Assembly: GCA_947632405.1 (NCBI GenBank)
Contig: CANRPE010000011.1
Location: 1 to 38,607, forward strand
Origin: an uncultured Bacilli bacterium
GTDB lineage: Bacteria; Bacillota_I; Bacilli_A; RF39; UBA660
DNA length: 38,607 nucleotides
Direction: 5' to 3'
Positions 1,103 to 35,723 of the stretch are shown one piece after another. Position 1 is the stretch's first letter, and each line of letters begins with the position of its first letter. The notes beneath the pieces were generated by a model. It searched no databases. It was not told the DNA's origin and saw only the letters and a program-made list of their open reading frames with translations. The position numbers and the translations under genes were made by a program.

Positions 1103-1104
1103 TT

Positions 1105-15924: not shown

Positions 15925-15985
15925 GACAATTAATTAACACGAATAAAAATTATTACATATAATATTTTGATTGAAAGGAGAATAT

Positions 15986-16978: not shown

Positions 16979-17591
16979 AATATTAGAAATTACCCACTTA
17001 AAAAAAACATATCATGATAAAACAGGTGAAGTAAAAGCATTAGATGATATTTCATTTGATGTATACAATCAAGAGTTTTTATCAATTGTTGGACCAAGTG
17101 GTTGTGGAAAGTCAACAATACTTTCCATTCTTTCATGTTTAATAAATTCTTCGGGCGGATATATCAAATTTAATAAAGAAAATTGTGTTTTAGGATATAT
17201 GTTACAAAAAGATTCTCTTTTTCCATGGAGAACTATTTTAGATAATTGTTTAATAGGTTTAGAAATTACTAATAATTTGACTGAAGAAAATAAAAATTAT
17301 GTAATTCATTTACTAGATACTTACGGATTAGGTGATTTTAAAAATAAATATCCTTCTAGTTTATCAGGAGGAATGCGTCAGCGTGTTGCTTTAATTAGAA
17401 CCTTAGCAATCAAACCTGATATTTTATTATTAGATGAAGCCTTTTCTGCTCTTGATTATCAAACTAAACTTGCATTAAGTGATGATATATATAAAATTAT
17501 AAAAAAAGAAGGTAAAACTGCCATTATGGTAACACATGATCTAGCAGAAGCAATCAGTTTAATAAACATGAAAATTTTAAAAATATTGTAA
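16968..17591 (+). CDS. ABC importer ATPase, 5' portion, interrupted by a mobile element
   Basis: This is the N-terminal part of a NitT/TauT-type ABC ATPase: Walker A GPSGCGKST (42-50), Q-loop near residue 80, signature LSGGM (132-136), Walker B with Asp156-Glu157, and the H-loop His190. After residue 194 it runs into foreign sequence and stops as a 207-residue protein. The missing end is at 34762-34930. Joining 16968-17551 to 34762-34930 gives 753 bp, exactly 251 codons, with an uninterrupted VTHDLAEAISLSDRIIVL. The start overlaps the end of the binding-protein gene by 11 bp. The chimeric tail (INMKILKIL) is probably not a working substitute. Confidence 0.9.
   Translation: MKDKILEITHLKKTYHDKTGEVKALDDISFDVYNQEFLSIVGPSGCGKSTILSILSCLINSSGGYIKFNKENCVLGYMLQKDSLFPWRTILDNCLIGLEITNNLTEENKNYVIHLLDTYGLGDFKNKYPSSLSGGMRQRVALIRTLAIKPDILLLDEAFSALDYQTKLALSDDIYKIIKKEGKTAIMVTHDLAEAISLINMKILKIL
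17541..17561. other. Left attachment junction (attL)
   Basis: The host ATPase reading frame is normal up to GAAGC (17547-17551). This block and the right junction share GAAGCNATNAGNTTA, 12 of 15 bases. Short, imperfect identity between ends is what serine recombinases leave. The exact crossover dinucleotide cannot be chosen from one copy. Confidence 0.7.
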
Positions 17592-17660: not shown

Positions 17661-17689
17661 TATAAAAAAAGAAAGTATATATCTTTCTA
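17661..17689 (-). terminator. Terminator of the recombinase gene
   Basis: The hairpin AGAAAG-TATATAT-CTTTCT (17670-17688) is followed on the minus strand by a run of seven Ts. It overlaps the recombinase stop codon. Confidence 0.65.
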
Positions 17690-19258
17690 ATCTTCATAAA
17701 ATTTAATATCAATTATCTCTGGTTTTCCATTAACTTTATCTTTATCTTTATTTACTATTATAATTTTCTCTACAAATTCTGTTAAAAATTCAAATTTTTC
17801 TTTATTAGTTAAATATGACCAGTGTTCTTTGATACTTTTAGTAATTTTTGATTTTGTTTTTTTTATGTTTTTTTGAATAGTAAGTAATTCAAATTTTTTT
17901 ATTTCTTTTTCCAATCCTTTATAATCTTTTTCTAAATTTTCTTTCATTATAATATAATCACTATATTCTAACTTATCATCCATAAACAATTTCATTATTT
18001 CTCTTAATTTATTATTTTTTTGAGCTGCCCTTTTTTTTAAACTTATCAATTCTAAATTATTTTCATTTGATTCTTCATTAGCTGGCTCATCAATATCTGT
18101 AAAGTCTTCTATTCTTTCTATATAATCTAAAAAAGCCTTTTCAACTTTTTTATGACTCATTCCTAAAGCTGTACATAATTTTTTTTCTCTATTAATACAT
18201 CTATATCCATTATGAACTAATGTATTACCATCTTTGTTTTTTTTAATAGTTCGATTTGTTGTTAAGGTATTACTACATAATCCACAAATTAATTTACCAC
18301 AATAATATACATCTTCTTTAGGTAGATTAGTTCTATGTGTTCTTTTTATTTTACTAAGTCTTTTTTGAGCTTTATCCCATGTTTTTATATCTATTATAGC
18401 CTCATGTAATCCTTTTGTAATAAATCCTTTTTTCCTATTATTATAGTCTGCAGCTTCTTCTATAGTTACTTGCTCTCTATTCATTCCATATCTGACATTA
18501 CCTATATAATTTACATTAGATAAAATAAGTCTTATCGTTTTTGGCATCCAAATACTATTTACTGTATAATATTCATTACTACCTCTTTTCTTTAATTTTT
18601 TTCCATGATTTTTAGTTGGAATATTTTCAGTATTTAAAATATTACATATTTCTGTAAGGTTTTTTCCATTATTATATAAAGAAAATATCCTTCTTACAAC
18701 CTTTGCCTCTGCTTCATTAATAGTTTGTATTTCTTGATGCTTTGGCCTGTCATATCCATAAGAAGGGGTAGAGCTACATAAAGAGTATCCTTTTTTTACT
18801 TTTTTAATAAATCCATCTACTACCCTATCTATTGTCGTTTCTCTTTCGAATTGTGCAGCTGCTCCTAAAATTCTTGTATTAAATCTTCCTGAAGGTGTGG
18901 ATACATCAACCATACCACCAGATAATGTATAAACCATAATTCCATATTCTTGTATCAATTCAATAAAATCTTCTGTATCTCTAGAATCTCTTGTCAATCT
19001 ATCAAACTTGTATAAAACTACAACATCAATCTTTTTTAATTTTATATCTTCTATTAACCGTTTAACCTCAGGTCTGTTTTCAACATTTTTACCACTTATT
19101 CCTTCATCAGCATAACTATCAAATATATTCCACCCTTGAGATAATGCAAAATTAGCTAGATTTTCTTTTTGAGCCTCTAATGAAAAACCTTGTAAAACTT
19201 GTTTTTCAGTAGAAACACGTACATATAATGCTGCATTAATAACTTTAACATTTTGCAA
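17687..19258 (-). CDS. Large serine recombinase (integrase of the element)
   Basis: This 523-residue protein has an N-terminal resolvase domain with the catalytic serine in YVRVSTEKQ (Ser16), the DRLTRDSRD helix, and ILGAAAQFERE. A recombinase domain follows (GYDRPKHQEI through NVNYIGNVRYG). Next come a zinc ribbon (CGKLICGLC ... RCINREKKLC) and a lysine-rich coiled coil before the C-terminus. Such enzymes integrate and excise DNA at attP/attB without homology. It starts at TTG 19258 after GAGGAGGG. Its place 136 bp from attL is standard for the integrase of an element. Confidence 0.95.
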   Translation of the reverse strand: MQNVKVINAALYVRVSTEKQVLQGFSLEAQKENLANFALSQGWNIFDSYADEGISGKNVENRPEVKRLIEDIKLKKIDVVVLYKFDRLTRDSRDTEDFIELIQEYGIMVYTLSGGMVDVSTPSGRFNTRILGAAAQFERETTIDRVVDGFIKKVKKGYSLCSSTPSYGYDRPKHQEIQTINEAEAKVVRRIFSLYNNGKNLTEICNILNTENIPTKNHGKKLKKRGSNEYYTVNSIWMPKTIRLILSNVNYIGNVRYGMNREQVTIEEAADYNNRKKGFITKGLHEAIIDIKTWDKAQKRLSKIKRTHRTNLPKEDVYYCGKLICGLCSNTLTTNRTIKKNKDGNTLVHNGYRCINREKKLCTALGMSHKKVEKAFLDYIERIEDFTDIDEPANEESNENNLELISLKKRAAQKNNKLREIMKLFMDDKLEYSDYIIMKENLEKDYKGLEKEIKKFELLTIQKNIKKTKSKITKSIKEHWSYLTNKEKFEFLTEFVEKIIIVNKDKDKVNGKPEIIDIKFYED

Positions 19259-19477: not shown

Positions 19478-19717
19478 CTATATTTTTACGATTCTGCAAA
19501 TTTTAATATTACATACTTGACTTTTATTTTTTTTAATAAATTCAACACTGTATTTAAAAAAAGTATCTTGATTAAAAATTTTTTCAAAACTAACTTTGTT
19601 TTTTTCACATTTTTTCATCAAATCATCTACCTTTGCTATAACATCATCTTTATTTTTACCGTCTACCATCATACTTATTATTTGTTGTCTTTTAACTGTA
19701 ACTAAATATTTTTTCAT
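19478..19717 (-). CDS. Small hypothetical protein (79 aa)
   Basis: This open frame begins MKKYLVTVKRQQIISMMVDG, is lysine-rich and has a good GGAGGAAG site. It is the second small gene upstream of the recombinase on the same strand. It shows no membrane segment, metal motif or helix-turn-helix that I can recognise. The N-terminal beta-strand pattern and the phrase MMVDGKNKDD suggest a small alpha/beta protein. It might be an excision or regulatory factor of the element. Confidence 0.6.
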   Translation of the reverse strand: MKKYLVTVKRQQIISMMVDGKNKDDVIAKVDDLMKKCEKNKVSFEKIFNQDTFFKYSVEFIKKNKSQVCNIKICRIVKI

Positions 19718-19743: not shown

Positions 19744-19866
19744 TTAATCTTTTATCAAACGACTATTTGCTAAATAGTTCCATAGGAATTTCACCTTTTT
19801 GTGGTTCTCACAAAACTGTTCCCATTGCTTTAGTCTGTGGCTAAGCAGAAGTATCATTATCCTCAT
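19744..19866 (-). CDS. Possible small ORF (40 aa)
   Basis: A 40-codon frame containing LLLSHRLKQWEQFCENHKK lies just before the 79-residue gene. Its composition is protein-like, but no ribosome binding site precedes the ATG, and 19867-20071 is otherwise empty. It may be a remnant. Confidence 0.25.
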   Translation of the reverse strand: MRIMILLLSHRLKQWEQFCENHKKVKFLWNYLANSRLIKD

Positions 19867-22061: not shown

Positions 22062-22529
22062 TTATTCTTCTTCAGTATAATACCATTTATCTTTCAACTT
22101 CTTTTTTTTATCTACTCTATGTCTAAATTCATAATCATCATAATTATTTAAATATGCTATATTCTGTGCAAAATTAATTTGGGAATTAAAATTTATTATT
22201 ATATTATTTTTTTCCTTCTGAATATATTCTACATCAAATTTTTCTATGAAAATGGCAATATTTTTATAGTTTTTCTTAAATTCATTAGCACTGATAACAG
22301 AGTGGTCTTTATTAATATCCAGTTCATATAGAGAATTATTATTTCTTAAAATTATAGACTTATAATCTTGATTTAATAATTCATCTTTTAAATTATTAAA
22401 TTCATTTTGATTCATATAATAATACATCATAATTTTAAAAGAATTTTCTTTTGCTGAGGGAAGAAGCATAATAATTATAATAATACTAAATATAACAGCA
22501 AATAGAGTTAATAAAAAATTTTTTTTCAT
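22062..22529 (-). CDS. Putative membrane-anchored immunity protein for the orphan RHS tip
   Basis: This 155-residue protein has one N-terminal membrane segment (about residues 4-24) and a charged body rich in N, K and Y outside it. No family was recognised. It lies directly downstream of the decayed RHS tip with a type-44 toxin-like domain, where immunity genes normally sit. It has its own AGGTG site. The open frame is intact although the toxin gene before it is broken, which fits an immunity gene kept after its toxin was lost. Function is inferred from position. Confidence 0.55.
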   Translation of the reverse strand: MKKNFLLTLFAVIFSIIIIIMLLPSAKENSFKIMMYYYMNQNEFNNLKDELLNQDYKSIILRNNNSLYELDINKDHSVISANEFKKNYKNIAIFIEKFDVEYIQKEKNNIIINFNSQINFAQNIAYLNNYDDYEFRHRVDKKKKLKDKWYYTEEE

Positions 22530-22554: not shown

Positions 22555-23566
22555 TTATTGTCTTTGCCACATTTCTATTCCTTTTTTAATTGCCTTATTA
22601 GTATGGTCCTATTAAAACCTTAAGATTCTTACCACAATGAGCATATCCTCCACCCATATATAATAATTCATCAGAAAATCCCATTGCTTTTCCAACATAA
22701 CCATAATGTATATTGCCAAAATCTTCTGTAGTAATAACTTCACCATTAAATATAAATTTTCCTTTTACTCCTAAATATGGAACATCAAACTCTTTCTCCC
22801 ATATTTCTTCCCATTTATAATCCCATTCTTGCTTATGATTAACTTGATTTTTAAAATAATCTAATGCTGCAGACTCACTCAAAGTTCTACTATAATAACT
22901 AGCTTCAGTAGCATTTTGATGTAATACTTTATTCAGTTCGTTACTATAATCGGGCAAATTATTACTGGTTGTTTTTTTAGTAGTTTTTGTGGTTTTATTT
23001 TTATTGGTAATGTTGCTTACCACTTTAGCAATTTTCTTTACAACTTTTTTAACAACAGATTTTACTTTTTTAAGTATTGATTTTAAACTAGCACCATTAT
23101 TGTCATAATTATTAATAGGATTATTACTTACATATGCATACAAATTACATGACATTATATCTTGATTTGAACCTAATATAACATCTGGACTAATAAATCT
23201 GCCCTATTTAGGATTATACTATCTATTGTTCAAATAATATAATCCTGTTTCTTCATCATAATAATAACTTCTATATCTAATTGGATTTATTTTACCTATA
23301 TGGTTATTGTCAATAATTTCACTACCATTTGAATCTTTTATTGAAATTAAGTCACCCCAACTGTCATATTCATAAGTTACTATCTTTTCTCCATTTTCAT
23401 TCAATATTCCTATTACATCATCTTGCATATTTTTTAAATAAAAATATACATTTTCATTATATTTGAATCCTAGTACCCCATCAATATCATATATATAGTA
23501 TATAATATCATTATTTCTTTTTTCAAATATAATATCATAAAAATACAAGATATTAGGTATTAACAC
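22555..23566 (-). pseudogene. Decayed orphan RHS tip with type-44 toxin-like domain
   Basis: A promoterless-looking fragment begins in the RHS core (IIYYIYDIDGVLGFKY, KNMQDDVIGIL, YRSYYYDEETGLYYL) at about 70% identity to the full RHS protein. It then switches to a different C-terminal domain with WDYKWEEIWEK, FGNIHYGYVGKAMGF and a YAHCG end, matching the pattern of polymorphic toxin type 44. Two in-frame TAG stops replace the Tyr and Trp of the RHS motif R-Y-x-N-P-x-W-G. A frameshift after IGPY hides a final NKAIKKGIEMWQRQ. It is a spare toxin cassette, now inactive. Confidence 0.8.
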
Positions 23567-23615: not shown

Positions 23616-24392
23616 TTATGTAGTTGTAGTTTCTTTACCAACATTATTAGCTATTTCACTTAATTCTACGGTTAATTTTTTCCATTCAGTAGCTAATGAT
23701 GTATTTTTGAAAATTATCACTTGATTATTTTGATCATATGTTATTGATTTATCATTTTCTTGTAAGAAAAGTAACATTTGATCTAATTTATCTAAGTAAG
23801 TATTTATTTGTGTTTCAAGTGAATTTGCTTGTTCTTTTAATTTTTTTATATCCTTTTTATCATCTTTTGTATATATTAATTTCAAATAAAAATCATAATA
23901 GTATTCAGCATCATCCCCATCATCAAATCTTTCTTTATCCAATAAACCTTTTATTGTTTTTTCTTCACATAGTTTATTAATATTTTTAATTGCTTTACTA
24001 ACATCATTTCTAGTATTCTTGATAGTAGTATGATTAAATATAAAATCAGGTCTGTCACTTTCTAAATTTACTGTTGAAAAAATTGTGACAATTTTTTCAT
24101 TATTTAATGCAGTGTATATTAATTTTAAATTATCTGATAAACCTTTATAATACTGTTTTATTGCTTGTTCTACATAAGCATAATCACCTTTTGTTTTAAT
24201 CTTTATAGAAAAATCATCATTTCTTAAATCTTTATTGTAATAATCTAATATTTCTGTTTTCAATTTTTCTTCCTGTTTTAAATCATCAATAACTAACATA
24301 AAGATAAACCCTATAAACATAATAACTAATACTAAAATAGTAATAATAATAAACTTAATACTTTTTTTTATATTTTTATTTTGCTTTTTCAT
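23616..24392 (-). CDS. Putative immunity protein, membrane-anchored, next to the RHS toxin
   Basis: This 258-residue protein has a lysine-rich N-terminus, one hydrophobic segment (about residues 13-35) and a long helical, probably extracytoplasmic body with a KQEEKLKTEILDYY start and coiled-coil stretches around DKKDIKKLKEQANSLETQIN. It lies directly after the 2074-residue RHS gene, the normal place for immunity. A hydrophobic toxin tip would need a membrane-located protector. The family resembles small anchored proteins seen near mobile elements. The immunity role is inferred from position. Confidence 0.6.
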   Translation of the reverse strand: MKKQNKNIKKSIKFIIITILVLVIMFIGFIFMLVIDDLKQEEKLKTEILDYYNKDLRNDDFSIKIKTKGDYAYVEQAIKQYYKGLSDNLKLIYTALNNEKIVTIFSTVNLESDRPDFIFNHTTIKNTRNDVSKAIKNINKLCEEKTIKGLLDKERFDDGDDAEYYYDFYLKLIYTKDDKKDIKKLKEQANSLETQINTYLDKLDQMLLFLQENDKSITYDQNNQVIIFKNTSLATEWKKLTVELSEIANNVGKETTTT

Positions 24393-24530: not shown

Positions 24531-27500
24531 TTATACAAAAGCAAATGAACCTATAGCATTTAAAGCACCTGAAGCAGCGCCTGCAACAGTGCTTGCAGCA
24601 GAAGTTACTGCAGCTGGGACAGGCACATGAACTGTAGCCATAACAACAATAGCTAATACTGGTAGTGAATTAACATTAAATTTATGAGTATCACTAATGT
24701 CAACATTTTCATTAATTGAATCTTTAACTTCAAAACCAAAATATAAAAATATTCCATCTAAACCACTTATAATACTATATGTATAATTATTTATATTAAT
24801 TCCACTAGAGGCTTTAAATTTAGCTCCACCAAACTCAATCTTTGAATTAGTATATGGTGTATTAAATTCTATTTGTTGATTTTGCACAGATGAATATTTA
24901 ATAAAACTATCACTACTTCCGACTACAGGTTCACTATAATTAGATGAAGTAGCATGCTCATAATTAAAGATACCATTACCAGTAAAAGACTTATAAATAT
25001 CTTTTGAAGAATTAACATTATAACTAAATAATGAAGATACTTTTTCCCTAACAGCAGTTACTACATCATTAACAAAATTTGTTATTGCTTTCTTTGCTTG
25101 CTTTACTAATTTTTTAGCTTTTTTTACTAAATTAGATAAAAATCCTTGCCCTAATGGATCTGCATACATTATTGGATTGTTACTAACGTAAGTAAATAGA
25201 TTGAAAGATAATACATCTTGATTTGAACATATTAACATATCTGGATTAATAAACCTTGACCAATCTGGATTATAATACCTATAATTAAGATAATATAGTC
25301 CTGTTTCTATATCATAGTAATAACTTCTATATCTAAAAGGATTTATATATCCAATATTATTATTATCAGTAATAGCATTACCATTTTCATCTTTTACACT
25401 CAATAATTTTCCCCAACTATCATATTCATATGAAACAATCTGCTTACCAGTACTATCTAAAATTCCAATTATATCATCTTGCATATTTTTAACATAATAA
25501 TAATAACTGTTTTTATATTTTAAACCAATCAATTCTGATGAATCATATAAATAATAAATCAAATCATTTTTCCTATTTTCATATATAATTTGATTACCTT
25601 CAAGAAAGTAATCTATTTTAGTATCATTAACAATTTTAGTAGTTCTTATTCCTTCGTGATTATATTTATAATCAATATTTAAATTCTTTGAAGTATTTGA
25701 ATAAGTTTTTAAATTTCTTCCTGAAGTCCAAGTAAGATTAATATCATTACCAATAGATATAGGATTGCCAATTTCATCATATGCTATATTAATATCATTA
25801 TATTGAGTTAACAAATTGTTCCAACTTAAATCATTGTATTGATATGAATCTGTTTTAATTATAGAATTATCAATCAAATTTCTAATTGTTTTAGATAAAA
25901 TATTTCCTGAATTATCATATAAATATTCTATTCTTTGATTTAAACTATAATTTTCTTCTTTGACTAACTGATTTAAATCATCATAATAGTATTTATTAGT
26001 TATATTATTATTATAATATACTTCTGAAAGATTTTCTAATTCATCATATTTATAGTTAAATATATTACCATTATTTTCTATACTTTTTATTAAATCAGTT
26101 GTTCTTTTTCCATTCAAAACATATGTAAATTTTGTAACATAATTATTTGGTAATAAAATTGAAGATACTCTATTTAAACTATCATATTCATAATTTATCT
26201 CATTATTATCAAATAATATTTTACTAATGCAATCATTATCATCAATATTATTTTGTATATAATTATAATTTTCATTTAGCTTATATTTTTGATATACAAG
26301 ATTATTATCATTATCATAAGTATAATTTATCTTAAATTCATCATATGTATAGTTAATTAATCTATTTGCCATATCAAATTCATTTTTTAGTATATGGTCA
26401 TTAGAAATTATTTTTGCTATATTACCATTATTATCATAATTATATTGAAATAAATCATCAACAAAATTGGCTGATACTAAACGGTTAAATATATCATATT
26501 CATATGTGATTTCTTGATTATTACCAAATATTGTTTTAATTAAATTACCAGTATTATAATCATACTTATTACTAATATAATTATTAATACTATCACCAAT
26601 TTTAACTGATGATACATTAAAAAAATCATCATATGTATATTTATAGTCAAGATTATTTTGTGATACTTTGTATAATAAATTATTATCATTATAGCTATAT
26701 TCAACTGTTCTATTACCTCTTGAAATGGATAATAATTGATTTTTATCATTGTAATTATATACTACTTTATTGCCATTATTATCAGTAATAGATTTTATTA
26801 AACCAGTTACAGGGTCAGTATCATATGAAATTGTACCTAGGCTTGATTTAGTAATTTTGTTAACAAAATTATTATTTATATCATATTCTGCATCATTTTC
26901 AAAAAATTCATCTATTATAGTTTCAAAATAAAATTCAAATGCAGGATTATCTTTTTCAAGTGGGCATATACTAATACCATCATTATCAGCTTTTAAATAT
27001 TCTGTAGATGTTTTTATATAATAGCTTCCATTTTCATTTTGTTCGAGTGTAAATACATTAGAAGAATCATCATCTGTCATAACAATAACATTATTTTTAT
27101 ATGCTAATGAAAAATCTGGTATTATAGAATGAATAAATTTGAAACTTTCATTCGTTTTTTTAATATCCCAAACAGTATTACTACATGCATTTTCTTCAAC
27201 TACTATTTCCCTATATTTTGCTTTTATAAATTTTTTTGTACCTTTACATCTTATTCTATATTTTCCATTTCCTATTTCCTTATTCCTACTACGATAAATA
27301 TTTGTCCTTATAGGATTTCCTTTTTCATCATAGTCTATCGTATTAGATATTCCATCATATGATATAGCATTTATTAATCGAGTAGAAATTTCGTTATCAT
27401 ATTCAAATCTAAATTTTCTTCCAACTGGAGTAGTTGCAGAAAGTAATTGATTTTTATCATCAAATTTAAACACACTTTCAATATCAGACTCACTTTTTAT

Positions 27501-30500
27501 AGATACAAGATTCCCATTATTATCATATTCATACTCACCACTTGTTACATTTTTATAAAATGATATATTAGTTATATAAAAAGTATTAGCATTAAGATAT
27601 TGAGAGAAATCTAGGTAAATAGATGTAAAATCTTCAAGTGCTCTACCTCTATATGAAAAAAATTGCCATTTATCAGAATCATAATTTAATTGAATTTCTG
27701 GAATACATCCTTCACTTGGATAGAAAAATAAACTCATATTATTACCTGCATGAGGTAAGCAACCTTCTACTCCTTCATTTTTATACCAAAATGATAATGT
27801 GAAAAGTTCATCTTTTTTACCTTTAATTTGATATTTTTTACCAAATCTCGTAGTATAATTAGGATTCATATTTACTTTTAATGCAATATTTTTATCATTA
27901 TTTAATTTTACAATTTCAAAAAATTTAGATATATCCGATACTTCAGTATCATCATCAATATTGAATACTTTAAATTCCCAATCCTTAAAACCATCAGAAA
28001 AATCAGAATTTTCTATTATATTATATGAATTAACTACTTTACCTTTTTCCAATTGAATATCATCTATATAAACAACACCTGATAAACAAAGTTCTAATTT
28101 TATTTTTAAATCAGTTTTAGCATTTTCATCATAATAGATTGTAACATCATTTCTTCCAAATGTTTCAGAAATATCTACTGTTTGGCTTTCATATACATTT
28201 GTTCCATCTTCTTTTGAATAACTTAATGAAATTATAACAGGAATATTATTTTTCAAATAACAACTAAAAGTATAGTAATTTCCTTTTGGAACTGATATTA
28301 ACTGATATATTGATTGATTAGTATCTGTTGTAGAAATTTTTAATGAACGATTTCCTAAGTTTGCTGATTCTTCAGAAAAAGATTTAACTAAATTATTTGT
28401 TTCATTATAGTCATATTTAAAATAATCTTCATCATTTTCAAAGCTTGTATTTTTTAAATAATTTTTTACATATTTCATAGGAATAGTATTTGAAGTAATT
28501 TTATTTTGATCCATTCCATAATATCCCATACCGTACTCATTAGTTAGAGAGTAAGCCTCACTAATATCATCATCATCGCCTAATGTACTTATAGAAAGTA
28601 AATTTCCACTTTCGTTAAATAATAGAGTTCGCTTTCTATTATTATTGTCAACAATTGTTGTTGCTCCATGGCCATATTCAAATGTAATATATCTTCCTAA
28701 AGTATTATTTAATCCATATTGAATTACTTTCTTTATTTTATATGGACTATTTTCGTAGTACTCATATTCCATTTTTAATTTATTAATATCAACAATAGAA
28801 GAAATTAATTTATTATTGTATTTAAATACCATATTGCCTTTAAAAGTTTGAATCTGATTTATTGAATTTTCAGAAATATCTAATACTATACTTTCACTAG
28901 GACTTTCTATAATTATAGTAGAATCATTATAAATTAATGATATTTCTTTATTATTAGAATCTATTACTTTAATTATTCTATTATTAGAATCTAATTGTAT
29001 ATTTATTTCATTATTAATACTGTCACAAATTTTAGTTAAATGATATTCATTTCCAATTTTTGAAAATACTTTTTTATTATGTTCTTTATCAGTCATTATA
29101 TATTGATTATCTTGTATTTCAATTTCTAGACCTAATCCATCTTCATCACAATATAAATTATCAGGTATATCTTGTAATGGATATTGATAACTTTTTTTAT
29201 AAAAATAATGTATAGTACCATCATCATCTTCGTATTCTAAATAATCTATATTATTAATAGTAATTGTTTTAATAGTTTGTTCTAAATTTAATTTAAAACC
29301 TTCACCAAAAAAAGTCGATTTTTTCAATATAACATCATTTGTATTATATATTAAAGACACCTCTGCAGGTAATTGACTACATACTGTATTACCAATATTA
29401 AATATCCCTACCAAATTACCATTATATGTATTAACATATGTTGAACCTATTTCAAATTTCTGTGATTTATAATTTAAATAATATTCTAAACCATTTTGGT
29501 TTCTATATGTCACTGAAAAAATTGGTTTAGGATTGCTATTCCCAGCAACAGTATTATTTTTTGAATAAAACGCAGGAAAATCATCATCAATATAATTTTC
29601 TTTTGTAGATTTAAGCATTATACCATAATTTTTAGTATCTTTATACCACTTTTTTACTAACTCAGTAATCCTAAAACCAAATATTCTATATACTATAGAT
29701 GAACCTGACACATAACTTCTTTCAAAATCTGAAATTGCTTCAACGCGTTTATCATATTTATCGTTCATTTGGTTCCAATTTGCAGTTGATTCATTCCAAT
29801 CTTGTGTAATACGGTGAGCTGTAATATAGTAAGTTTTTGGACTTTTATTATTGCTTGGAGATATGTATGGGATTAAATTTAATTCAGCATAAATTATTTC
29901 ACTTCCTGTACCAATTTCTGGTAAATCAAATTTTATCAATGCCCTATTAATTCTAGAATTACCATTAACTTTTTCTGCTCCCACTTTTAAAATATCCTTA
30001 GTACCATTATTTGAACCTGTATCATCTGGATAAATATAAGTATCATATAAATTTACATTTTGATTTTCATTTGTAATTGTCGGATCAACATATACAGGGA
30101 AAACTCTTTCTATAGAATTAAGCCACTCGTCATCTAATAGTAATGTTAATATATATCCATCACTAAAACTATCAAGAGAATAATAAATAGTATCATTTCT
30201 TTGATTATTAGAATCTACCATAAAAGGTTTCTCAAGTCTAAATATAATTTTATGATTGTTATCTTTACAAATTATTTCTCCATTTTCTTCTATTAATTTT
30301 AGATCCGTATTAACTTCAAAACTAAACTCAGAATAATTAGCATTTTGTAAAATTATAGTTTCTTTTACCTTATTTGCTAATGTCTGGTATTCAATTTTAA
30401 TATCATCTGTAATACTATTATAAGTAACATTTTTCAATTCTTTAGATATCATTCTTTCCTGGAACTTAGTACTATTAAATTTAAAGTTTCTAAGTTTAAA

Positions 30501-30755
30501 ATTAAGATAATGATTATCTTTTATCATCTTTAATAATGAATTCTGAAAATCATCATTAAATTCTGCTTTATAATCATTACTTTTATTGACTAAAGAATTG
30601 TTTACTCTTATAAGGGTATTATCAATATCTTCATATTTACCATTTTTTAAATAATGCACATCTGTATCATAAATTTTTGCAACAATAGTACCATCTTCTT
30701 GTAAGAAATGTTTTTCTCTGGGTTTTCTTTTTGCTATTAATTCAACTTGTTTCAT
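24531..30755 (-). CDS. Large RHS/YD-repeat polymorphic toxin with DNRLRE, CBM-like and ricin-like domains
   Basis: This 2074-residue protein starts WapA-like (DVHYLKNGKYEDIDNTLI). A DNRLRE-type domain lies at about 235-420 (TYIYPDDTGSN, RALIKFDLPEI). YD repeats fill most of 430-1830 (YEYD, YNYNDKNQLLS). Two jelly-roll, carbohydrate-binding-like stretches at about 765-1065 and a ricin-type beta-trefoil-like stretch at about 1160-1280 interrupt the repeats. The RHS core ends in LYYLNYRYYNPDWSRF and DPLGQG (about 1868). The last about 200 residues form a variable tip with a very hydrophobic Ala/Val-rich end. RHS proteins form a shell holding a toxin tip. The tip activity is unknown; a membrane-active toxin is a guess. 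It lies 17 bp after the collar gene, with an AGGAGG site. Confidence 0.93.
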   Translation of the reverse strand: MKQVELIAKRKPREKHFLQEDGTIVAKIYDTDVHYLKNGKYEDIDNTLIRVNNSLVNKSNDYKAEFNDDFQNSLLKMIKDNHYLNFKLRNFKFNSTKFQERMISKELKNVTYNSITDDIKIEYQTLANKVKETIILQNANYSEFSFEVNTDLKLIEENGEIICKDNNHKIIFRLEKPFMVDSNNQRNDTIYYSLDSFSDGYILTLLLDDEWLNSIERVFPVYVDPTITNENQNVNLYDTYIYPDDTGSNNGTKDILKVGAEKVNGNSRINRALIKFDLPEIGTGSEIIYAELNLIPYISPSNNKSPKTYYITAHRITQDWNESTANWNQMNDKYDKRVEAISDFERSYVSGSSIVYRIFGFRITELVKKWYKDTKNYGIMLKSTKENYIDDDFPAFYSKNNTVAGNSNPKPIFSVTYRNQNGLEYYLNYKSQKFEIGSTYVNTYNGNLVGIFNIGNTVCSQLPAEVSLIYNTNDVILKKSTFFGEGFKLNLEQTIKTITINNIDYLEYEDDDGTIHYFYKKSYQYPLQDIPDNLYCDEDGLGLEIEIQDNQYIMTDKEHNKKVFSKIGNEYHLTKICDSINNEINIQLDSNNRIIKVIDSNNKEISLIYNDSTIIIESPSESIVLDISENSINQIQTFKGNMVFKYNNKLISSIVDINKLKMEYEYYENSPYKIKKVIQYGLNNTLGRYITFEYGHGATTIVDNNNRKRTLLFNESGNLLSISTLGDDDDISEAYSLTNEYGMGYYGMDQNKITSNTIPMKYVKNYLKNTSFENDEDYFKYDYNETNNLVKSFSEESANLGNRSLKISTTDTNQSIYQLISVPKGNYYTFSCYLKNNIPVIISLSYSKEDGTNVYESQTVDISETFGRNDVTIYYDENAKTDLKIKLELCLSGVVYIDDIQLEKGKVVNSYNIIENSDFSDGFKDWEFKVFNIDDDTEVSDISKFFEIVKLNNDKNIALKVNMNPNYTTRFGKKYQIKGKKDELFTLSFWYKNEGVEGCLPHAGNNMSLFFYPSEGCIPEIQLNYDSDKWQFFSYRGRALEDFTSIYLDFSQYLNANTFYITNISFYKNVTSGEYEYDNNGNLVSIKSESDIESVFKFDDKNQLLSATTPVGRKFRFEYDNEISTRLINAISYDGISNTIDYDEKGNPIRTNIYRSRNKEIGNGKYRIRCKGTKKFIKAKYREIVVEENACSNTVWDIKKTNESFKFIHSIIPDFSLAYKNNVIVMTDDDSSNVFTLEQNENGSYYIKTSTEYLKADNDGISICPLEKDNPAFEFYFETIIDEFFENDAEYDINNNFVNKITKSSLGTISYDTDPVTGLIKSITDNNGNKVVYNYNDKNQLLSISRGNRTVEYSYNDNNLLYKVSQNNLDYKYTYDDFFNVSSVKIGDSINNYISNKYDYNTGNLIKTIFGNNQEITYEYDIFNRLVSANFVDDLFQYNYDNNGNIAKIISNDHILKNEFDMANRLINYTYDEFKINYTYDNDNNLVYQKYKLNENYNYIQNNIDDNDCISKILFDNNEINYEYDSLNRVSSILLPNNYVTKFTYVLNGKRTTDLIKSIENNGNIFNYKYDELENLSEVYYNNNITNKYYYDDLNQLVKEENYSLNQRIEYLYDNSGNILSKTIRNLIDNSIIKTDSYQYNDLSWNNLLTQYNDINIAYDEIGNPISIGNDINLTWTSGRNLKTYSNTSKNLNIDYKYNHEGIRTTKIVNDTKIDYFLEGNQIIYENRKNDLIYYLYDSSELIGLKYKNSYYYYVKNMQDDIIGILDSTGKQIVSYEYDSWGKLLSVKDENGNAITDNNNIGYINPFRYRSYYYDIETGLYYLNYRYYNPDWSRFINPDMLICSNQDVLSFNLFTYVSNNPIMYADPLGQGFLSNLVKKAKKLVKQAKKAITNFVNDVVTAVREKVSSLFSYNVNSSKDIYKSFTGNGIFNYEHATSSNYSEPVVGSSDSFIKYSSVQNQQIEFNTPYTNSKIEFGGAKFKASSGININNYTYSIISGLDGIFLYFGFEVKDSINENVDISDTHKFNVNSLPVLAIVVMATVHVPVPAAVTSAASTVAGAASGALNAIGSFAFV

Positions 30756-30772
30756 AATAATTTTTTCCTCCT

Positions 30773-31336
30773 CTAACTAGTTCTTTTCCACATATAAACA
30801 ACTAAGTATGGTGGCATATTATTATGAGCACCATCTCCACCAGTAAAATTAACAACATCCTTAGTATTTGTACTATGATATGATTTAGCATTTGAATTAG
30901 GTACTCCTGTATAATCTGCACCAGCTACAAATGGGTAAATTGTATTAACAGTATGTCGGTGTTTTGGCATTTCATCAACCGTTAACTTATGTGTAGCTTC
31001 GCCACCAGTTTTACCATTAACGTATGTAGAACCAGCACCAAGTAAAAATCTGTCTTTAAGTTGTACCCATGTACCTCCAAATAATGTACTTGGATTTGTT
31101 TCATTTACAGACATGTAGATAGATCCTACTGGATATACAAAATTTAGCATAGTTTCTTTATCAATATTATTATTATTTTTTACTGTTAAACTTTGTACTG
31201 TTAAATTTCCATTACTATCTAATTCAAATTTATTTTCTTTCGAAGTAATACAAGATACATTTAAATTGTTTACTTCTAGGTTTGTATTTTCTCCTTCCTT
31301 TGTGAAGGCATCTATTATATAGTCATATTCATTCAT
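30773..31336 (-). CDS. Phage tail-collar or baseplate-like protein
   Basis: At 187 residues, the C-terminal two thirds show the tail-collar pattern: YPVGSIYMSVNETNPSTLFG then GTWVQLKDRFLLGAG, MPKHRHTV and MPPYLVVYMWKRT. The N-terminal third is a short repeat-like beta region (LDSNGNLTVQSLTVKNNN). In phages such proteins sit at the tail tip or fibre. Here it is the first gene of a two-gene unit with the RHS toxin, so it may help attach or display that protein. No other tail gene is present. Confidence 0.85.
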   Translation of the reverse strand: MNEYDYIIDAFTKEGENTNLEVNNLNVSCITSKENKFELDSNGNLTVQSLTVKNNNNIDKETMLNFVYPVGSIYMSVNETNPSTLFGGTWVQLKDRFLLGAGSTYVNGKTGGEATHKLTVDEMPKHRHTVNTIYPFVAGADYTGVPNSNAKSYHSTNTKDVVNFTGGDGAHNNMPPYLVVYMWKRTS

Positions 31337-31576
31337 TTTTATTTCCTTCTTTCTTTAATTATTTTCAATTTTTTGTATGGAAAACGCCATTTTAAGTGAG
31401 TATTATATATTTGCTACGTTTTCCTTCTTTAATCAATCATAGTAACCATCTCACTTTCTAAAAATAATTTCTCATAGAAAATGAACATTTAACAGTATAT
31501 TAGGAGTACTATAACTGTACAATTAATATATAAAGAATTTAGCTTACTGAATTTAAGTCTTTATTATATAATCATC

Positions 31577-31614
31577 AAAAAAATAGTACATCAAACGTAC
31601 TATTTGAAAAAAAA
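31577..31614. terminator. Bidirectional terminator hairpin
   Basis: The perfect stem AAATAGTAC / GTACTATTT (31581-31589 with 31597-31605) and 7-base loop are flanked by A and T runs on both strands. Confidence 0.65.
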
Positions 31615-31634
31615 TTTATATCTAAATTTTTCAA

Positions 31635-31686
31635 AATACAATAAAATACAGTGTATATTTCTTTACACACTGTATTTTATTGTATT
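31635..31686 (-). terminator. Perfect 20-bp stem-loop downstream of the endolysin gene
   Basis: The arms at 31635-31654 and 31667-31686 (AATACAATAAAATACAGTGT and its exact complement) enclose a 12-base loop. On the minus strand it is followed by TTTTG. It most simply ends the lysis operon, but its length is unusual for a terminator. Confidence 0.6.
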
Positions 31687-31862
31687 ATTGTTCATCAATT
31701 ATATTTTAGAATCACTTGATATATAAATTTTTTTCTTGAAATTTACACTTATATTATCAAATTCAGGATAGGAGTTATTATATTCATTTCTACATTCTTC
31801 ATTATCAAAATATACATTATTATATAAAAATATTAAAATTTCATTAATATTATTTTTTATAA

Positions 31863-32819
31863 TTATGTCTCATATAGAAATGTACTATATATCCATATAT
31901 CTTTTCCATTTAAAATCAATTTGGCAGAATTAGTTTTTACATCAATTGCTTTAACTTCATAGATATTCTTGTTTAAAACATAAGACTCTCCTCCCAATAT
32001 AATATCGTCTTGATTTATGGAAGAACCAAATTTATCAACTTCAATGAAATCATCTAAAGGAATCCAATGATAACTTTTAACATTTTCACTTTTATAATCG
32101 TTTAAAGTACATCCTGTCAATTGGCAACAGCCAAATAAATTACTAGAAATTGGACTTTTTAATATATCAACTTTAAAAATACCATCAAATTTAACTTTGG
32201 ATCCTATATGTAATATTTGATCAACACTTTCATTAGAAACATTATTATTAATTTCAATGTTTGTTGATCCTGTAATTTTCCAATTTCCACTCATTCCTTT
32301 TAAAATGTTAGTATTATCTACAAAATAACAGTCATCTAAATCATATTCATTATTAAAGTGATAGTTTCCATATTTGTTTTTTGTCCATGTTGAGTCATTT
32401 GATTGAGATACTTCTATGTGGCAATGGATACCTGTAATATTAGAAAAACCCTTATTTCCCATATTTCCTAATTTATTACCCTGAGGTACAATTAATCCTA
32501 CTGTAGCATCCATCGTATTATCATGTGCTGTCATAAATGTAGCATAATCAATTCTTCCATTAGCAAATCTTACTTTATTAACTGATTGCCACATCACTTG
32601 ACCTGTTTTTGGATATAATTTTAAGCACTTACATGTGCAAGGAGCATAATATGGATACCTTATTCCTGCTACTTTACCTCTAACATCATTAGCCATTATT
32701 CCTTTATGAGAATAAGATCCATTAGAACCCTGAGAAATATACATATCAGTAAATGGACATAAAAAATTTTCTATCCCATTTTTAACAGACTTTTGACCTT
32801 TAATCATTTCTTTTTCCAT
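31863..32819 (-). CDS. M23-type endolysin
   Basis: At 318 residues, the N-terminal half carries a zinc peptidase pattern of the M23 (LytM) kind: YSHKGIMANDV with His38 and Asp45, His99 in MTAHDN, and GIHCHIEVS with His132 and His134. The C-terminal part (LHIGSKVKFDGIFKVDIL, repeated beta strands) looks like an SH3-like wall-binding region. It would cut peptidoglycan cross-links. It overlaps the holin gene by 16 bp, the usual holin-endolysin coupling. Confidence 0.85.
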   Translation of the reverse strand: MEKEMIKGQKSVKNGIENFLCPFTDMYISQGSNGSYSHKGIMANDVRGKVAGIRYPYYAPCTCKCLKLYPKTGQVMWQSVNKVRFANGRIDYATFMTAHDNTMDATVGLIVPQGNKLGNMGNKGFSNITGIHCHIEVSQSNDSTWTKNKYGNYHFNNEYDLDDCYFVDNTNILKGMSGNWKITGSTNIEINNNVSNESVDQILHIGSKVKFDGIFKVDILKSPISSNLFGCCQLTGCTLNDYKSENVKSYHWIPLDDFIEVDKFGSSINQDDIILGGESYVLNKNIYEVKAIDVKTNSAKLILNGKDIWIYSTFLYET

Positions 32820-33034
32820 TCATTAATAAGCTTTAAAGCTAAATTCAATACTGCACTAATTCCACTTGCAATAGCACCAAAAAATACACTTTTTATTAAT
32901 GTAACATCATAACTGGTAGTAGAATTTAATCTAACTATTATACTTGTTAAAAATCCTTCAATAAACGTTATTATCATCCTTTGAACAATATCATTTTTTA
33001 AAAAAAAATTTATTTTATATAGTTTATAACTCAT
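32804..33034 (-). CDS. Holin
   Basis: This protein is 76 residues from the ATG at 33034, which has AGAGGTGA upstream; the longer frame from 33124 lacks a site. It has two hydrophobic segments (IITFIEGFLTSIIVRL and VFFGAIASGISAVLNLALKL), a short turn and a lysine-rich end. This is the usual layout of small phage holins that open the membrane to endolysin. The assignment rests on size, topology and position. Confidence 0.7.
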   Translation of the reverse strand: MSYKLYKINFFLKNDIVQRMIITFIEGFLTSIIVRLNSTTSYDVTLIKSVFFGAIASGISAVLNLALKLINEWKKK

Positions 33035-33044
33035 AAAATCACCT

Positions 33045-33350
33045 CTACTTAAATTTATTTTCAATTTTATCAATTCTTTCGTGCGCATAATTAGTATTTT
33101 CTTCACATCTTGCAACACGTTCACTCATAGAATCAAACTTATCATCAATATTTTTAATATCGTTTTTTAACTCTATATTTCCAGTAATTACCATATCTAA
33201 TTTTGTTGATATCGTTGTATCTCTTTTTACTCTATCCTTTATTTCTTCATTATTTTTATTACTTATACAATTTTTATATGTCAAGACTGCTATAATGCAA
33301 GTGATTAATGTACAAATAATAGATATAATTAATGAATAATTAACACTCAT
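33045..33350 (-). CDS. XhlA-like lysis accessory protein
   Basis: This protein is 101 residues from the ATG at 33350, preceded by AAGGG; the TTG at 33368 is too early. It has one N-terminal membrane segment (IISIICTLITCIIAVLTY) followed by a long charged, helical coil (NIDDKFDSMSERVARCEENT). This resembles XhlA-type proteins that act with holins. It is the first gene of a three-gene lysis cassette, only 10 bp before the holin start. Confidence 0.65.
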   Translation of the reverse strand: MSVNYSLIISIICTLITCIIAVLTYKNCISNKNNEEIKDRVKRDTTISTKLDMVITGNIELKNDIKNIDDKFDSMSERVARCEENTNYAHERIDKIENKFK

Positions 33351-33459
33351 AAAAATCCCTTCTCTCAAATTAAAATGTTAAAAAATAATTGAATTTATAA
33401 TAGTAAATGTGAAAAATCCATATCATATAACACCTCCGTTTCTATGAATAATTTCTCAT

Positions 33460-33494
33460 AAAAAAAAAGGTACTAACAGTATGTCCAATGTACC
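33460..33494 (-). terminator. Terminator of the XRE gene at 33497-33958
   Basis: The stem GGTAC / GTACC (33490-33494 with 33469-33473) is followed by a run of nine Ts on the minus strand, directly after the stop codon. Confidence 0.55.
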
Positions 33495-33496
33495 AT

Positions 33497-33958
33497 TTAC
33501 TTATCTATTGATACTGGTTGAATATTATTTGCTAATAAAAAATCATTTATTTCATCAATATCACAATTATACATATTTCTTAAAATAAAGCAATAAATAC
33601 AATTTTTTTCTGTGCTATTATTTTCTATATTGAAACCGGCACTACTTAATAATTCAAAACTAAATTCTGGTGGTAAGTTCATACCAATACATAAAGCAAT
33701 GATTGTTTCTAGCGAATATCCTCTATTATTATTTGTTTCAATTTCCTTAATTGTTTGAACACTAATATGGGAATTTTCTTCTAATTTTTCTCTTGTCTTA
33801 CCAGAACATTCTCTTAAATATCTTAATTTTCTTCTAAAATTATAAGGTAAATCATTACATATAATCATGATTTTATTATAATATTTATCAAATATTTCAG
33901 GTTTTAATCTTATATTATCAATTGTTTCTAAATTACTAATATTATTTATTTTATTCAT
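33497..33958 (-). CDS. XRE-family regulator of the element
   Basis: This 153-residue protein has a helix-turn-helix at about residues 40-90 (FRRKLRYLRECSGKTREKLE, then ISVQTIKEIETNN), followed by LETIIALCIGMNLPPEFSFE and a C-terminal helical region containing NCIYCFILRNMYNCD with three cysteines. It stands alone, upstream of the lysis cassette on the same strand, with its own terminator. It is a candidate repressor or activator of the lysis and toxin genes. Confidence 0.8.
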   Translation of the reverse strand: MNKINNISNLETIDNIRLKPEIFDKYYNKIMIICNDLPYNFRRKLRYLRECSGKTREKLEENSHISVQTIKEIETNNNRGYSLETIIALCIGMNLPPEFSFELLSSAGFNIENNSTEKNCIYCFILRNMYNCDIDEINDFLLANNIQPVSIDK

Positions 33959-34720: not shown

Positions 34721-34750
34721 ACGATTTTAACAATCATGCCTATTTTCTTT

Positions 34751-34771
34751 ATTAGCGAAGCTATTAGCTTA
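34751..34771. other. Right attachment junction (attR)
   Basis: From GAAGC (34757-34761) onward the sequence TATTAGCTTATCAGATCG resumes the ATPase frame (AISLSDR). Upstream of it the sequence belongs to the element. Confidence 0.7.
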
Positions 34772-34930
34772 TCAGATCGTATTATTGTATTAACTAAAAG
34801 ACCTGCTAAAATTAAAAATATATATGAAATTAAATTAACAAACAAATCAACACCAATCAATAACCGTAAGTGTAAAGAATTTTCTGAATATTATGATGAA
34901 ATTTGGAGTGATTTAGATGTCCACATATAG
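34757..34930 (+). pseudogene. ABC importer ATPase, 3' portion, cut off by the element
   Basis: The frame from GAAGC reads EAISLSDRIIVLTKRPAKI and ends IWSDLDVHI, the normal C-terminal region of a NitT/TauT-type ATPase. It has no start of its own and completes the gene whose first 194 codons lie at 16968-17551. Its end overlaps the permease start by 14 bp, as in an intact operon. Confidence 0.9.
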
Positions 34931-35723
34931 TAAAGAACATCAACAATTTTTAAAGAAAATTAGAAAAGATAAAATAATTGTACTATTTTTTCAAATTTTG
35001 ATAATTGCAAGTTTTCTCATTATTTGGGAATTACTTGTAAAATATAAACTTATTAATACATTTTTATCTTCATCGCCTAGTCAAGTATTTGAAACAATTA
35101 TTTCTTTATTAAAAGACAATTCACTTTTTCACCATATTTGGATTACTACTTATGAAACTATAGTTAGTTTTCTCATTGCATCTATTATAGGATTAACATT
35201 TGGGGCTATTTTATGGTGGAATAAGCTCCTTGCAAGAATTATGGATCCATATATTACGGTATTAAATTCCTTACCAAAAGTCGCTTTAGGACCACTTATA
35301 ATTATTTGGGTAGGAGCTAGTACAAATTCTATAATTTTTATGGCACTGTTAATTACTGTATTTGTGGCAATTATTAATACATATAATGGATTTAATTCAA
35401 CCGAAGAAAATTATATAACTCTATTAAAATCATTTAAAGCTACTAAATTTCAGATTTTTTTTAAAGTTATTTTACCAAGCAATTATTCAAATATTATTAA
35501 TACATTAAAAATTAATGTCAGTATGAGTTTAATTGGAGTTATTATGGGAGAATTATTAGTATCAAAGAGTGGACTTGGTTATTTAATTATGTATGGATCT
35601 CAAGTATTTAATATAAATCTAGTCATCACCTCTGTAATTATTCTTGGATTACTTTCACTCTTAATGTACTTTACAGTTTCTCGATTAAATCATTTTAATA
35701 AAAAAAGAAATCTTCATAAATGA
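34917..35723 (+). CDS. ABC importer permease, NitT/TauT type
   Basis: At 268 residues with about six membrane segments, it shows the ABC coupling motif in LLKSFKATKFQIFFKVILPS and the family features around LNSLPKVALGPLIIIWVGAS. It should form the channel for the solute captured by the protein at 15986-16978. The insertion separates it from the operon promoter, so it is now expressed only from a promoter inside the element or not at all. Confidence 0.92.
   Translation: MSTYSKEHQQFLKKIRKDKIIVLFFQILIIASFLIIWELLVKYKLINTFLSSSPSQVFETIISLLKDNSLFHHIWITTYETIVSFLIASIIGLTFGAILWWNKLLARIMDPYITVLNSLPKVALGPLIIIWVGASTNSIIFMALLITVFVAIINTYNGFNSTEENYITLLKSFKATKFQIFFKVILPSNYSNIINTLKINVSMSLIGVIMGELLVSKSGLGYLIMYGSQVFNINLVITSVIILGLLSLLMYFTVSRLNHFNKKRNLHK

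What the first reader, a model, noticed from the sequence alone, without database searches (positions are those of the whole stretch)
24531..33350. RHS toxin coupled to a phage lysis cassette and tail-collar protein, with no virion genes
The element keeps an XhlA-like protein, holin, endolysin, collar protein and a giant RHS protein, but no head, terminase, portal, tube or sheath genes. One reading is a worn prophage. The other is a dedicated toxin-release island: lysis of a few cells would free a large RHS toxin carrying sugar-binding domains and a collar-like adaptor, while immunity genes protect kin. The RHS gene is a 2074-codon intact frame amid decayed neighbours, which favours continued use.
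Basis: partly seen in the sequence, partly recalled or inferred. Interest (0 to 1): 0.75.

Follow-up and report, generated by a model that had tools for sequence, protein, structure and literature searches.

The report
Self-lysis cassette that releases RHS toxin
A gut-type Bacilli genome carries a compact mobile cassette that joins phage-type cell-bursting genes to a giant, changeable-tip RHS toxin and a phage-tail-like partner protein; the same unit recurs without virus-particle genes in related bacteria, so it is probably a dedicated way to free a toxin that cannot be exported normally rather than a dead virus.

Summary
Window 24531-33958 (minus strand) encodes a HTH regulator, XhlA-like membrane protein, holin, M23-type endolysin, Gp10_C ("collar") protein and an intact 2074-aa RHS protein. 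No virion gene was found in the 17.2-kb element, which carries a CcrB-like serine recombinase and sits inside an ABC-ATPase gene; the empty site is seen in a sister genome.

It is not a worn prophage. The same order without virion genes occurs in six other genomes, in unrelated contexts, within one RHS clade. The genes are under purifying selection; only the toxin tip is free. The lysis operon and the collar-RHS operon carry the same leader element, found exactly twice in the genome.

Wider: collar is adjacent to RHS in 73 of 74 loci; no RHS of this family has a Sec signal, whereas most relatives in other families do; non-homologous holin/lysin sets sit beside collar-RHS in at least 17 of 28 fully visible loci. 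One clade adds a headless phage tail.

Best reading: a T10SS/TcdE-like, lysis-cassette-based release system for a polymorphic RHS toxin. Release, killing and the collar's role are inferred. Lysis genes are missing at some sister loci, so lysis may not be obligatory.

The parts
17541..17556 (+). left junction of the mobile element inside the ABC-transporter ATPase gene (AEAISL codons)
   Evidence: left flank aligns to the intact gene of sister genome G002 up to L105:3087; right flank starts at L105:3073; 15-bp overlap TTAGCAGAAGCAATC
34752..34767 (+). right junction of the mobile element; ATPase gene resumes
   Evidence: C-terminal ATPase fragment 34736-34930, permease 34917-35723
17687..19258 (-). 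large serine recombinase (integrase), 523 aa, CcrB-like
   Evidence: phrog_95 integrase 3.7e-109; NCBIfam CcrB 4.8e-48, below equivalog cut-off
22062..22529 (-). putative immunity protein next to the orphan Ntox44 tip; membrane-anchored, 155 aa
   Evidence: homologue directly after an Ntox44-like RHS end in G248 (L083:8659-9171, E 5.2e-10); role inferred
22598..23566 (-). orphan RHS end (broken core fragment plus Ntox44 tip 22598-23155)
   Evidence: Ntox44 PF15607 6.3e-16; 46% identity to RHS 1720-1970 with two in-frame TAG
23616..24392 (-). putative immunity protein directly after the RHS gene; one membrane segment, 258 aa
   Evidence: position; homologue directly after an RHS gene in G042 (L037:7822-8604, E 1.3e-90), but that RHS has a different tip, so pairing is uncertain
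24531..30755 (-). RHS polymorphic toxin, 2074 aa (about 230 kDa), no Sec signal
   Evidence: core dN/dS 0.28 against G007
24534..25157 (-). variable toxin tip (residues 1867-2074), C-terminal hydrophobic stretch 2026-2053, no known family
   Evidence: alignment conservation falls from 0.49 to under 0.1 after residue 1900; tip dN/dS about 1.0; TM-like segment
26904..27281 (-). beta-trefoil (ricin/HA33-like) lectin domain within RHS, residues 1159-1284
   Evidence: AlphaFold model; HA33 and mosquitocidal-toxin trefoils Z about 19, rmsd 1.4-2.0
28041..28469 (-). CBM16/22-like carbohydrate-binding module in RHS, residues 763-905
   Evidence: Z 17.5, rmsd 2.0 over 136 residues to CBM16 2zey
29502..30695 (-). 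N-terminal polysaccharide-lyase-type CBM / DNRLRE region of RHS, residues 21-418
   Evidence: DNRLRE 237-409 E 4.3e-25; Z 16.4 to 8wab chondroitin-sulfate CBM
30773..31336 (-). Gp10_C / tail-collar-like partner protein, 187 aa
   Evidence: Gp10_C 1.6e-25; T4 gp10 structure 2fkk 1.1e-11; adjacent to RHS in 73 of 74 loci
31447..31476 (-). leader element copy 2, before the collar-RHS operon, preceded by GTAC...GTAC palindromes at about 31488-31605
   Evidence: 0-mismatch pattern match, expected 0.01; conserved in type-A loci
31635..31686 (-). long A+T-rich hairpin between the lysis operon and the collar-RHS operon
   Evidence: z-score -6.3
31863..32819 (-). endolysin, M23-type with H..D / HxH motifs, 318 aa
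   Evidence: 72% DNA identity to the C14 prophage lysis genes
32804..33034 (-). holin, two hydrophobic segments, 76 aa from ATG
   Evidence: homologues in the other type-A cassettes
33045..33350 (-). XhlA-like membrane-anchored coiled-coil protein (phrog_1863)
   Evidence: dN/dS 0.04 against G007
33431..33460 (-). leader element copy 1, before the lysis operon; hairpin plus T-run just upstream at about 33460-33494
33497..33958 (-). Cro/C1-type HTH regulator, first gene of the cassette
   Evidence: HTH_3 2.2e-05, phrog_4031 2.7e-20; dN/dS 0.10

Best explanation
A mobile toxin-release cassette. A large-serine-recombinase element inserted into an ABC-ATPase gene carries two co-controlled minus-strand operons: (1) XhlA-like protein, holin and endolysin behind a HTH regulator; (2) a phage short-tail-fibre-like collar protein and a 230-kDa RHS polymorphic toxin without a Sec signal. 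SHOWN by sequence: gene content, absence of detectable virion genes, recurrence of the unit in seven genomes, selection, the shared leader element, loss of the Sec signal in the family, co-localisation of lysis genes with the RHS gene. INFERRED: on a signal, through the HTH regulator and/or an event at the shared leader, a cell makes folded RHS cages and collar in its cytoplasm; holin and endolysin then open membrane and wall, by lysis or by leaky holin transport, and free the large folded toxin, as type 10 secretion does for Tc toxins and as TcdE does for clostridial toxins. The collar and the sugar-binding modules (CBM, trefoil) bind target surfaces, the polymorphic tip damages competing bacteria, and immunity proteins protect kin.
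For: (1) The same HTH-XhlA-holin-lysin-collar-RHS order without virion genes occurs in G007 (behind conjugative ICE genes), G008 (beside the S10 ribosomal operon), G180 and three more genomes; on the RHS tree these lie in one clade (support 99). (2) Purifying selection against G007: HTH 0.10, XhlA 0.04, holin 0.50, lysin 0.19, collar 0.33, RHS core 0.28; tip 1.0. (3) The leader TATGAGAAATTANNNNTAGAAANNGAG sits before both operons, with no other exact copy in 1.35 Mb; two copies in 6 of 7 type-A cassettes, one in the seventh, no comparable hit in other loci. (4) None of 76 RHS N-termini of the family has a hydrophobic signal, while most relatives in other families do. (5) Endolysins co-localise with RHS: 8 of 17 within about 12 kb, 0.43 expected, p 3e-9. 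(6) Non-homologous lysis sets flank collar-RHS elsewhere: LLH holin + CHAP, holin_4_1 + M23, GH25, Amidase_2, Hol44-like + CW_7. (7) The endolysin metal-binding motifs are intact. (8) The RHS model is a T6SS-Rhs/TcC-type shell with three kinds of lectin/CBM.
Against: About 10 of the 28 fully visible sister loci show no lysis gene next to collar-RHS, including one genome (L160/G138) inside the type-A clade, so lysis is not obligatory. The lysis and toxin operons are separate, probably not one transcript. Lysin and collar of window and G007 are much more diverged (dS about 1) than the rest (dS 0.1-0.3), so parts are swapped by recombination. No spanin-like function was identified. No experiment; nearly all relatives are metagenome-assembled genomes.
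Confidence: 0.64

Rival explanations
1. Worn prophage: a phage lost its virion genes and kept integrase, lysis genes and an RHS moron by chance.
For: Integrase at one end and lysis genes towards the other is a prophage-like layout; lysis genes are 72% identical in DNA to those of the tailed prophage on contig C14; decayed DNA lies between the RHS end and the integrase.
Against: The same unit recurs in unrelated contexts (ICE, chromosome) within one RHS clade without virion genes; every gene is under purifying selection; duplicated control leader; the recombinase is CcrB-like, and no related integrase was found in the DNA read around the G007 and G008 copies.
Confidence: 0.07
2. Reduced tailocin or satellite: the collar-RHS pair is mounted on a phage tail (its own in relatives, or a tail supplied by the C14 prophage here), and the lysis genes release that particle.
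For: One RHS clade has a headless siphovirus-type tail module directly before XhlA-holin-lysin-collar-RHS, in five contigs, with the same chromosomal flanks in the three viewed in full; the collar protein is a tail-fibre-type domain; a complete tail module exists in the same genome on C14.
Against: The tail clade is one separate branch, not ancestral to type A on the tree; the other collar-RHS loci of the census have no tail gene detected in the flanks; holin and XhlA-like genes differ between the two clades.
Confidence: 0.12
3. Collar-RHS is an independent toxin pair freed by general autolysis or another route; the lysis genes beside it are a separate phage-derived hitch-hiker with its own role.
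For: About 10 of 28 visible sister loci lack adjacent lysis genes; lysis and toxin operons are separated by a strong hairpin.
Against: Co-localisation p about 3e-9; several unrelated lysis sets at the same spot; a leader shared by exactly these two operons.
Confidence: 0.17

Closest known systems
Type 10 secretion of Yersinia Tc toxins (YenLC/YenTc and lysis cassettes embedded in Tc operons; PMC10847048)
   Same: Phage-type holin and endolysin outside a phage, linked to a very large cytoplasmically folded toxin that contains an RHS shell; co-control of lysis and toxin
   Different: Here a Bacilli host, no spanin identified, no TcA/TcB; a polymorphic RHS tip and a collar protein instead; lytic release not shown
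Large clostridial toxin loci with holin (TcdE; PMC12150058, reviewed in PMC9527704)
   Same: Giant toxin without signal peptide beside a holin; in other members of this family also a sigma-70-like gene upstream, as in LCT loci
   Different: No glucosyltransferase toxin; the full endolysin is kept; collar partner; the window copy uses a HTH regulator, not a sigma factor
Clostridial bacteriocin with UviB holin and endolysin (Bcn5 loci; PMC9527704)
   Same: Signal-less antibacterial protein strictly linked to holin and endolysin in a Firmicute
   Different: Here an RHS polymorphic toxin with orphan tip and collar, much larger
WapA/Rhs of Gram-positives (e.g. Streptococcus suis WapA, PMC12704120)
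   Same: YD/RHS repeats, variable C-terminal toxin, DNRLRE-type region
   Different: WapA has a Sec signal and wall-binding domain; this family has none and carries a collar gene and often lysis genes
F-type tailocins (monocin-like headless siphovirus tails; from memory)
   Same: Headless tail plus lysis genes in the G149/L236/L237 relatives
   Different: The window has no tail genes; in the relatives an RHS toxin ends the operon

Membership tests
Prophage / phage element | virion genes (terminase, portal, capsid, tape measure, tube) | tested here: not met
   no hit among the element's ORFs with PHROGs
RHS polymorphic toxin | YD/RHS repeats and Rhs-associated core | tested here: met
   Rhs shell structure, Z up to 29.6
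RHS polymorphic toxin | conserved core with an exchangeable C-terminal tip | tested here: met
   conservation drops at about residue 1900; tip dN/dS 1.0 against core 0.28; tips with GIY-YIG- and HNH-like motifs by eye, Ntox44 by Pfam
RHS polymorphic toxin | cognate immunity gene downstream | tested here: inconclusive
   membrane proteins follow both tips, but the homologue of the first one follows a different tip in G042
WapA (Sec-exported wall-associated RHS) | N-terminal Sec signal and wall anchor | tested here: not met
   no hydrophobic N-terminus
Type 10 secretion system | holin plus endolysin outside a phage, linked to a cargo | tested here: met
Type 10 secretion system | spanin (diderm hosts) | tested here: inconclusive
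   only a weak Rz-like match for the XhlA-like protein (phrog_739, E 0.036)
Type 10 secretion system | demonstrated holin/endolysin-dependent release | not testable with these tools
   needs deletion and supernatant assay
Tc toxin complex | TcA translocon and TcB (SpvB plus propeller) | tested here: not met
   no SpvB or TcA/TcB domain among the cassette's proteins by Pfam; the RHS shell fold is similar (4igl Z 24)
Large clostridial toxin locus | glucosyltransferase toxin | tested here: not met
   no such domain in Pfam or NCBIfam
Tailocin | tail tube, tape measure and baseplate genes | tested here: not met
   absent in the window element; present in relatives G149, L236, L237
SCC-type recombinase element | CcrA/B/C recombinase above family cut-off | tested here: not met
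   CcrB score 164 against cut-off 900; inserted in an ABC ATPase gene

The most novel reading that the evidence does not exclude
Collar and RHS form a two-part free toxin: a phage short-tail-fibre-like receptor binder carries an RHS cage, released by co-regulated self-lysis through one leader shared by both operons. This unit has repeatedly captured unrelated lysis modules after losing the Sec signal and in one lineage became the end of a headless phage tail: a contact-independent RHS delivery route distinct from T6SS, WapA/Sec and Tc complexes.
Probability: 0.3. Interest if true: 0.88.

Novelty: new variant of a known kind. Interest (0 to 1): 0.74.

Why it matters
How Gram-positive RHS/WapA toxins of more than 200 kDa leave the producer is an open question (stated for WapA in PMC12704120). 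Here a whole family of signal-less RHS toxins is tied to phage-type lysis genes many times over, which makes a lysis-release route directly testable. It would extend holin/endolysin-based toxin release from insecticidal and clostridial toxins to polymorphic, probably antibacterial RHS toxins of uncultured Bacilli, and give a handle (collar, shared leader, headless-tail relatives) on how such toxins are aimed and controlled.

Tried and rejected
Phage records with RHS matches as evidence for a phage origin: the best one (MT835902) has a Sec-signal RHS among ordinary bacterial genes, and MT835475 a Sec-signal N-domain among housekeeping genes, both probably bacterial DNA; the Anaeroplasmataceae phage PV036447 has a different RHS protein (match over 15% of the query only). 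Viral contigs: of four loci, two are the headless-tail locus with bacterial flanks; one (L235) has the same RHS sequence in the tree as a bacterial contig (L207) and carries a TerL-like match (1e-16) about 2.5 kb past the RHS, not followed up; the fourth (L238) is a short, weak match. Known toxin family for the window tip: none in Pfam or NCBIfam. TcdR-type sigma factor as equivalog: only a general sigma-70 match. Rfam: no RNA family explains the shared leader. Portal search in the tail-bearing genomes was empty, but without a positive control. Structure searches list only matching folds; absence there was not used as evidence.
Full report
OBSERVATION. The window is contig C11 of a 1.35-Mb genome assembly (G000, 54 contigs, 96% complete). 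On the minus strand it reads, in transcription order: Cro/C1-type regulator (33497-33958), XhlA-like membrane/coiled-coil protein (33045-33350), holin (32804-33034), endolysin (31863-32819), Gp10_C "collar" protein (30773-31336), RHS (24531-30755, 2074 aa, no stop). No virion gene was found in the element.

THE ELEMENT. The window's ABC-transporter ATPase gene is split: its start is at 16968-17591 and its end at 34736-34930. In sister genome G002 the gene is whole; the two window flanks meet there with a 15-bp overlap (TTAGCAGAAGCAATC), so about 17.2 kb were inserted. At the left end lies a 523-aa large serine recombinase, phage-integrase/CcrB-like. So the cassette is cargo of a recombinase element, with the broken second RHS end (Ntox44 tip) and putative immunity genes behind the main RHS gene.

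NOT A WORN PROPHAGE. In the same genus, G007 has the same order with an RHS 83% identical, placed behind ICE conjugation genes (relaxase, VirD4-like, VirB4-like by sequence reading); G008 has it (RHS 53%) between a DNA polymerase IV-like gene and the S10 ribosomal operon; G180 and three more genomes of a named collection also have it. None shows virion genes in the DNA read. On an RHS tree of 79 rows these seven fall in one clade (support 99) with two unlabelled rows, one a short contig (L158) and one a true absence (L160). Between window and G007, dN/dS is 0.10 (HTH), 0.04 (XhlA-like), 0.50 (holin), 0.19 (lysin), 0.33 (collar), 0.28 (RHS core) and 1.0 (RHS tip): genes in use, with a fast-changing toxin end. 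Lysin and collar have dS near 1 against 0.1-0.3 for the others, so they are exchanged by recombination.

SHARED CONTROL. Aligning the gaps HTH-to-XhlA and lysin-to-collar of type-A loci showed one conserved leader, TATGAGAAATTANNNNTAGAAANNGAG, after a GTAC...GTAC palindrome. In the window it matches with no mismatch at 33434-33460 and 31450-31476, where 0.01 matches are expected with up to three mismatches; in the whole genome these two are the only exact sites. By weight matrix, six of seven type-A loci have two copies and the seventh has one; no comparable hit lies in the other census loci or in 110 kb of other sequence from this genome (the matrix was built from these instances, so the presence score is partly by construction, the absence elsewhere is not). 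A long hairpin (z -6.3) separates the two operons in the window. This ties lysis and toxin operons together in control, though not in one transcript.

THE WIDER FAMILY. In 291 genomes of the taxonomic family, 42 have the RHS, most of the full-length copies intact and diverging only in about the last 200 residues. In 80 named loci (uncultured Bacilli, Bacillales, Tenericutes, Candidatus Scybalousia and Caccenecus records) plus viral contigs, the collar gene lies directly before RHS in 73 of 74 usable loci. None of 76 N-termini has a hydrophobic signal, while relatives in other families of the class mostly start with one. Exceptions outside the family exist (f18 genomes G440 and G570, without signal, with a conserved membrane protein upstream). 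Endolysin homologues in 25 RHS-bearing genomes: 17 places, 8 of them within about 12 kb of RHS against 0.43 expected (binomial p 3e-9). In the 28 loci with wide flanks at least 17 have lysis genes; one Amidase_2 gene turned up among the neighbours of 16 loci first scored as lacking them. The sets are not homologous to each other: M23-type lysins with three or more holin kinds, LLH holin with CHAP, GH25, Amidase_2, and a Hol44-like holin with a CW_7 lysin, upstream or downstream of collar-RHS. Many of these loci have a sigma-70 region-4 gene before the collar, a layout like that of large clostridial toxin loci (PMC9527704).

HEADLESS TAIL RELATIVES. One RHS clade (G149/L210, L186, L190, L236, L237; support 100) has a siphovirus-type tail module (major tail protein, tape measure, Dit, Tal, fibre with Gp10_C end) leading into XhlA-like, holin, lysin, collar and RHS. 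In the three read in full it starts at a LexA-like repressor and has ordinary chromosomal genes before it; no head, portal or terminase gene was found. This looks like an F-type tailocin with an RHS toxin at its end, or a stable tail remnant; it keeps the tailocin rival alive.

STRUCTURE. AlphaFold models (mean pLDDT 85 for residues 1-1150; 73 for the rest, tip poor) give a polysaccharide-lyase-type CBM at 21-418, an RHS shell closest to T6SS Rhs proteins and also to Tc components (Z about 20-30), a CBM16/22-like module at 763-905 and a ricin/HA33-like trefoil at about 1159-1284. The collar profile finds T4 gp10 structures. The endolysin keeps both metal-binding motifs.

MECHANISM. The best reading is release of a folded, signal-less RHS toxin through holin and endolysin, as shown for Yersinia Tc toxins (PMC10847048: lytic T10SS) and reported as non-lytic for TcdE (PMC12150058). 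Which mode applies here cannot be told; a complete holin-endolysin pair and a 230-kDa folded cargo favour lysis. The collar as receptor binder and the tip as antibacterial are inference from domain types and from nuclease-type tips elsewhere in the family.

LIMITS. Nearly all genomes are metagenome assemblies; flanks are often cut; virion genes were sought with PHROGs in the window and selected relatives, and with single-sequence profiles elsewhere, so distant virion genes could be missed at some loci. Signal peptides were judged by hydropathy, not by a trained predictor. The literature library holds open-access papers only; no report of a collar-RHS pair was found, which does not prove absence.

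Noticed in passing
window 15971-17591 and 34736-35723; G001, G003-G008 equivalents, L051:12220-17452: The ABC transporter (NMT1/ThiY-like binding protein, ATPase, permease) is an insertion hotspot: in most sister genomes the genes are split into pieces far apart, in G198 with two serine recombinases inside the binding-protein gene.
   Followed up: partly
window 19780-19860 (-): Rfam pemK RNA motif (60.6 bits, gathering 34.8) with no PemK gene recognised behind it; the next ORF is an unknown 79-aa protein at 19478-19717.
   Followed up: no
L068:7001-19999, L239-L242: Headless siphovirus-type tail locus with LexA-like start, lysis genes, collar and RHS, with conserved chromosomal flanks: a possible F-type tailocin carrying an RHS toxin.
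   Followed up: partly
L056:2924-3412, L059:16971-17474, L062:16456-16932 and others: A sigma-70 region-4 gene lies directly before the collar in roughly twenty loci, several with lysis genes after the RHS, a layout like the clostridial toxin locus.
   Followed up: partly
L141, L149, L152-L154 (G440, G570): Another family (f18) has signal-less RHS proteins with a conserved 153-174-aa membrane protein and a small HTH gene upstream, perhaps a parallel solution.
   Followed up: no
L011/L012 (G000:C14): A tailed prophage with terminase, portal, capsid, tape measure and a lysis module related to the window's.
   Followed up: partly
L013:6034-6846 (G000:C23): A solitary endolysin gene among housekeeping genes.
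   Followed up: no
L083, L093, L210: Arrays of orphan RHS ends with putative immunity genes behind the main RHS gene.
   Followed up: no
L235:9551-11272 (IMG/VR contig): A terminase-like gene about 2.5 kb after an RHS gene without a visible collar, whose sequence matches bacterial contig L207; the only RHS relative seen near a possible head-packaging gene.
   Followed up: no
window 73-2146: Two tandem paralogous surface-type proteins (332 and 328 aa) with N-terminal hydrophobic segments.
   Followed up: no
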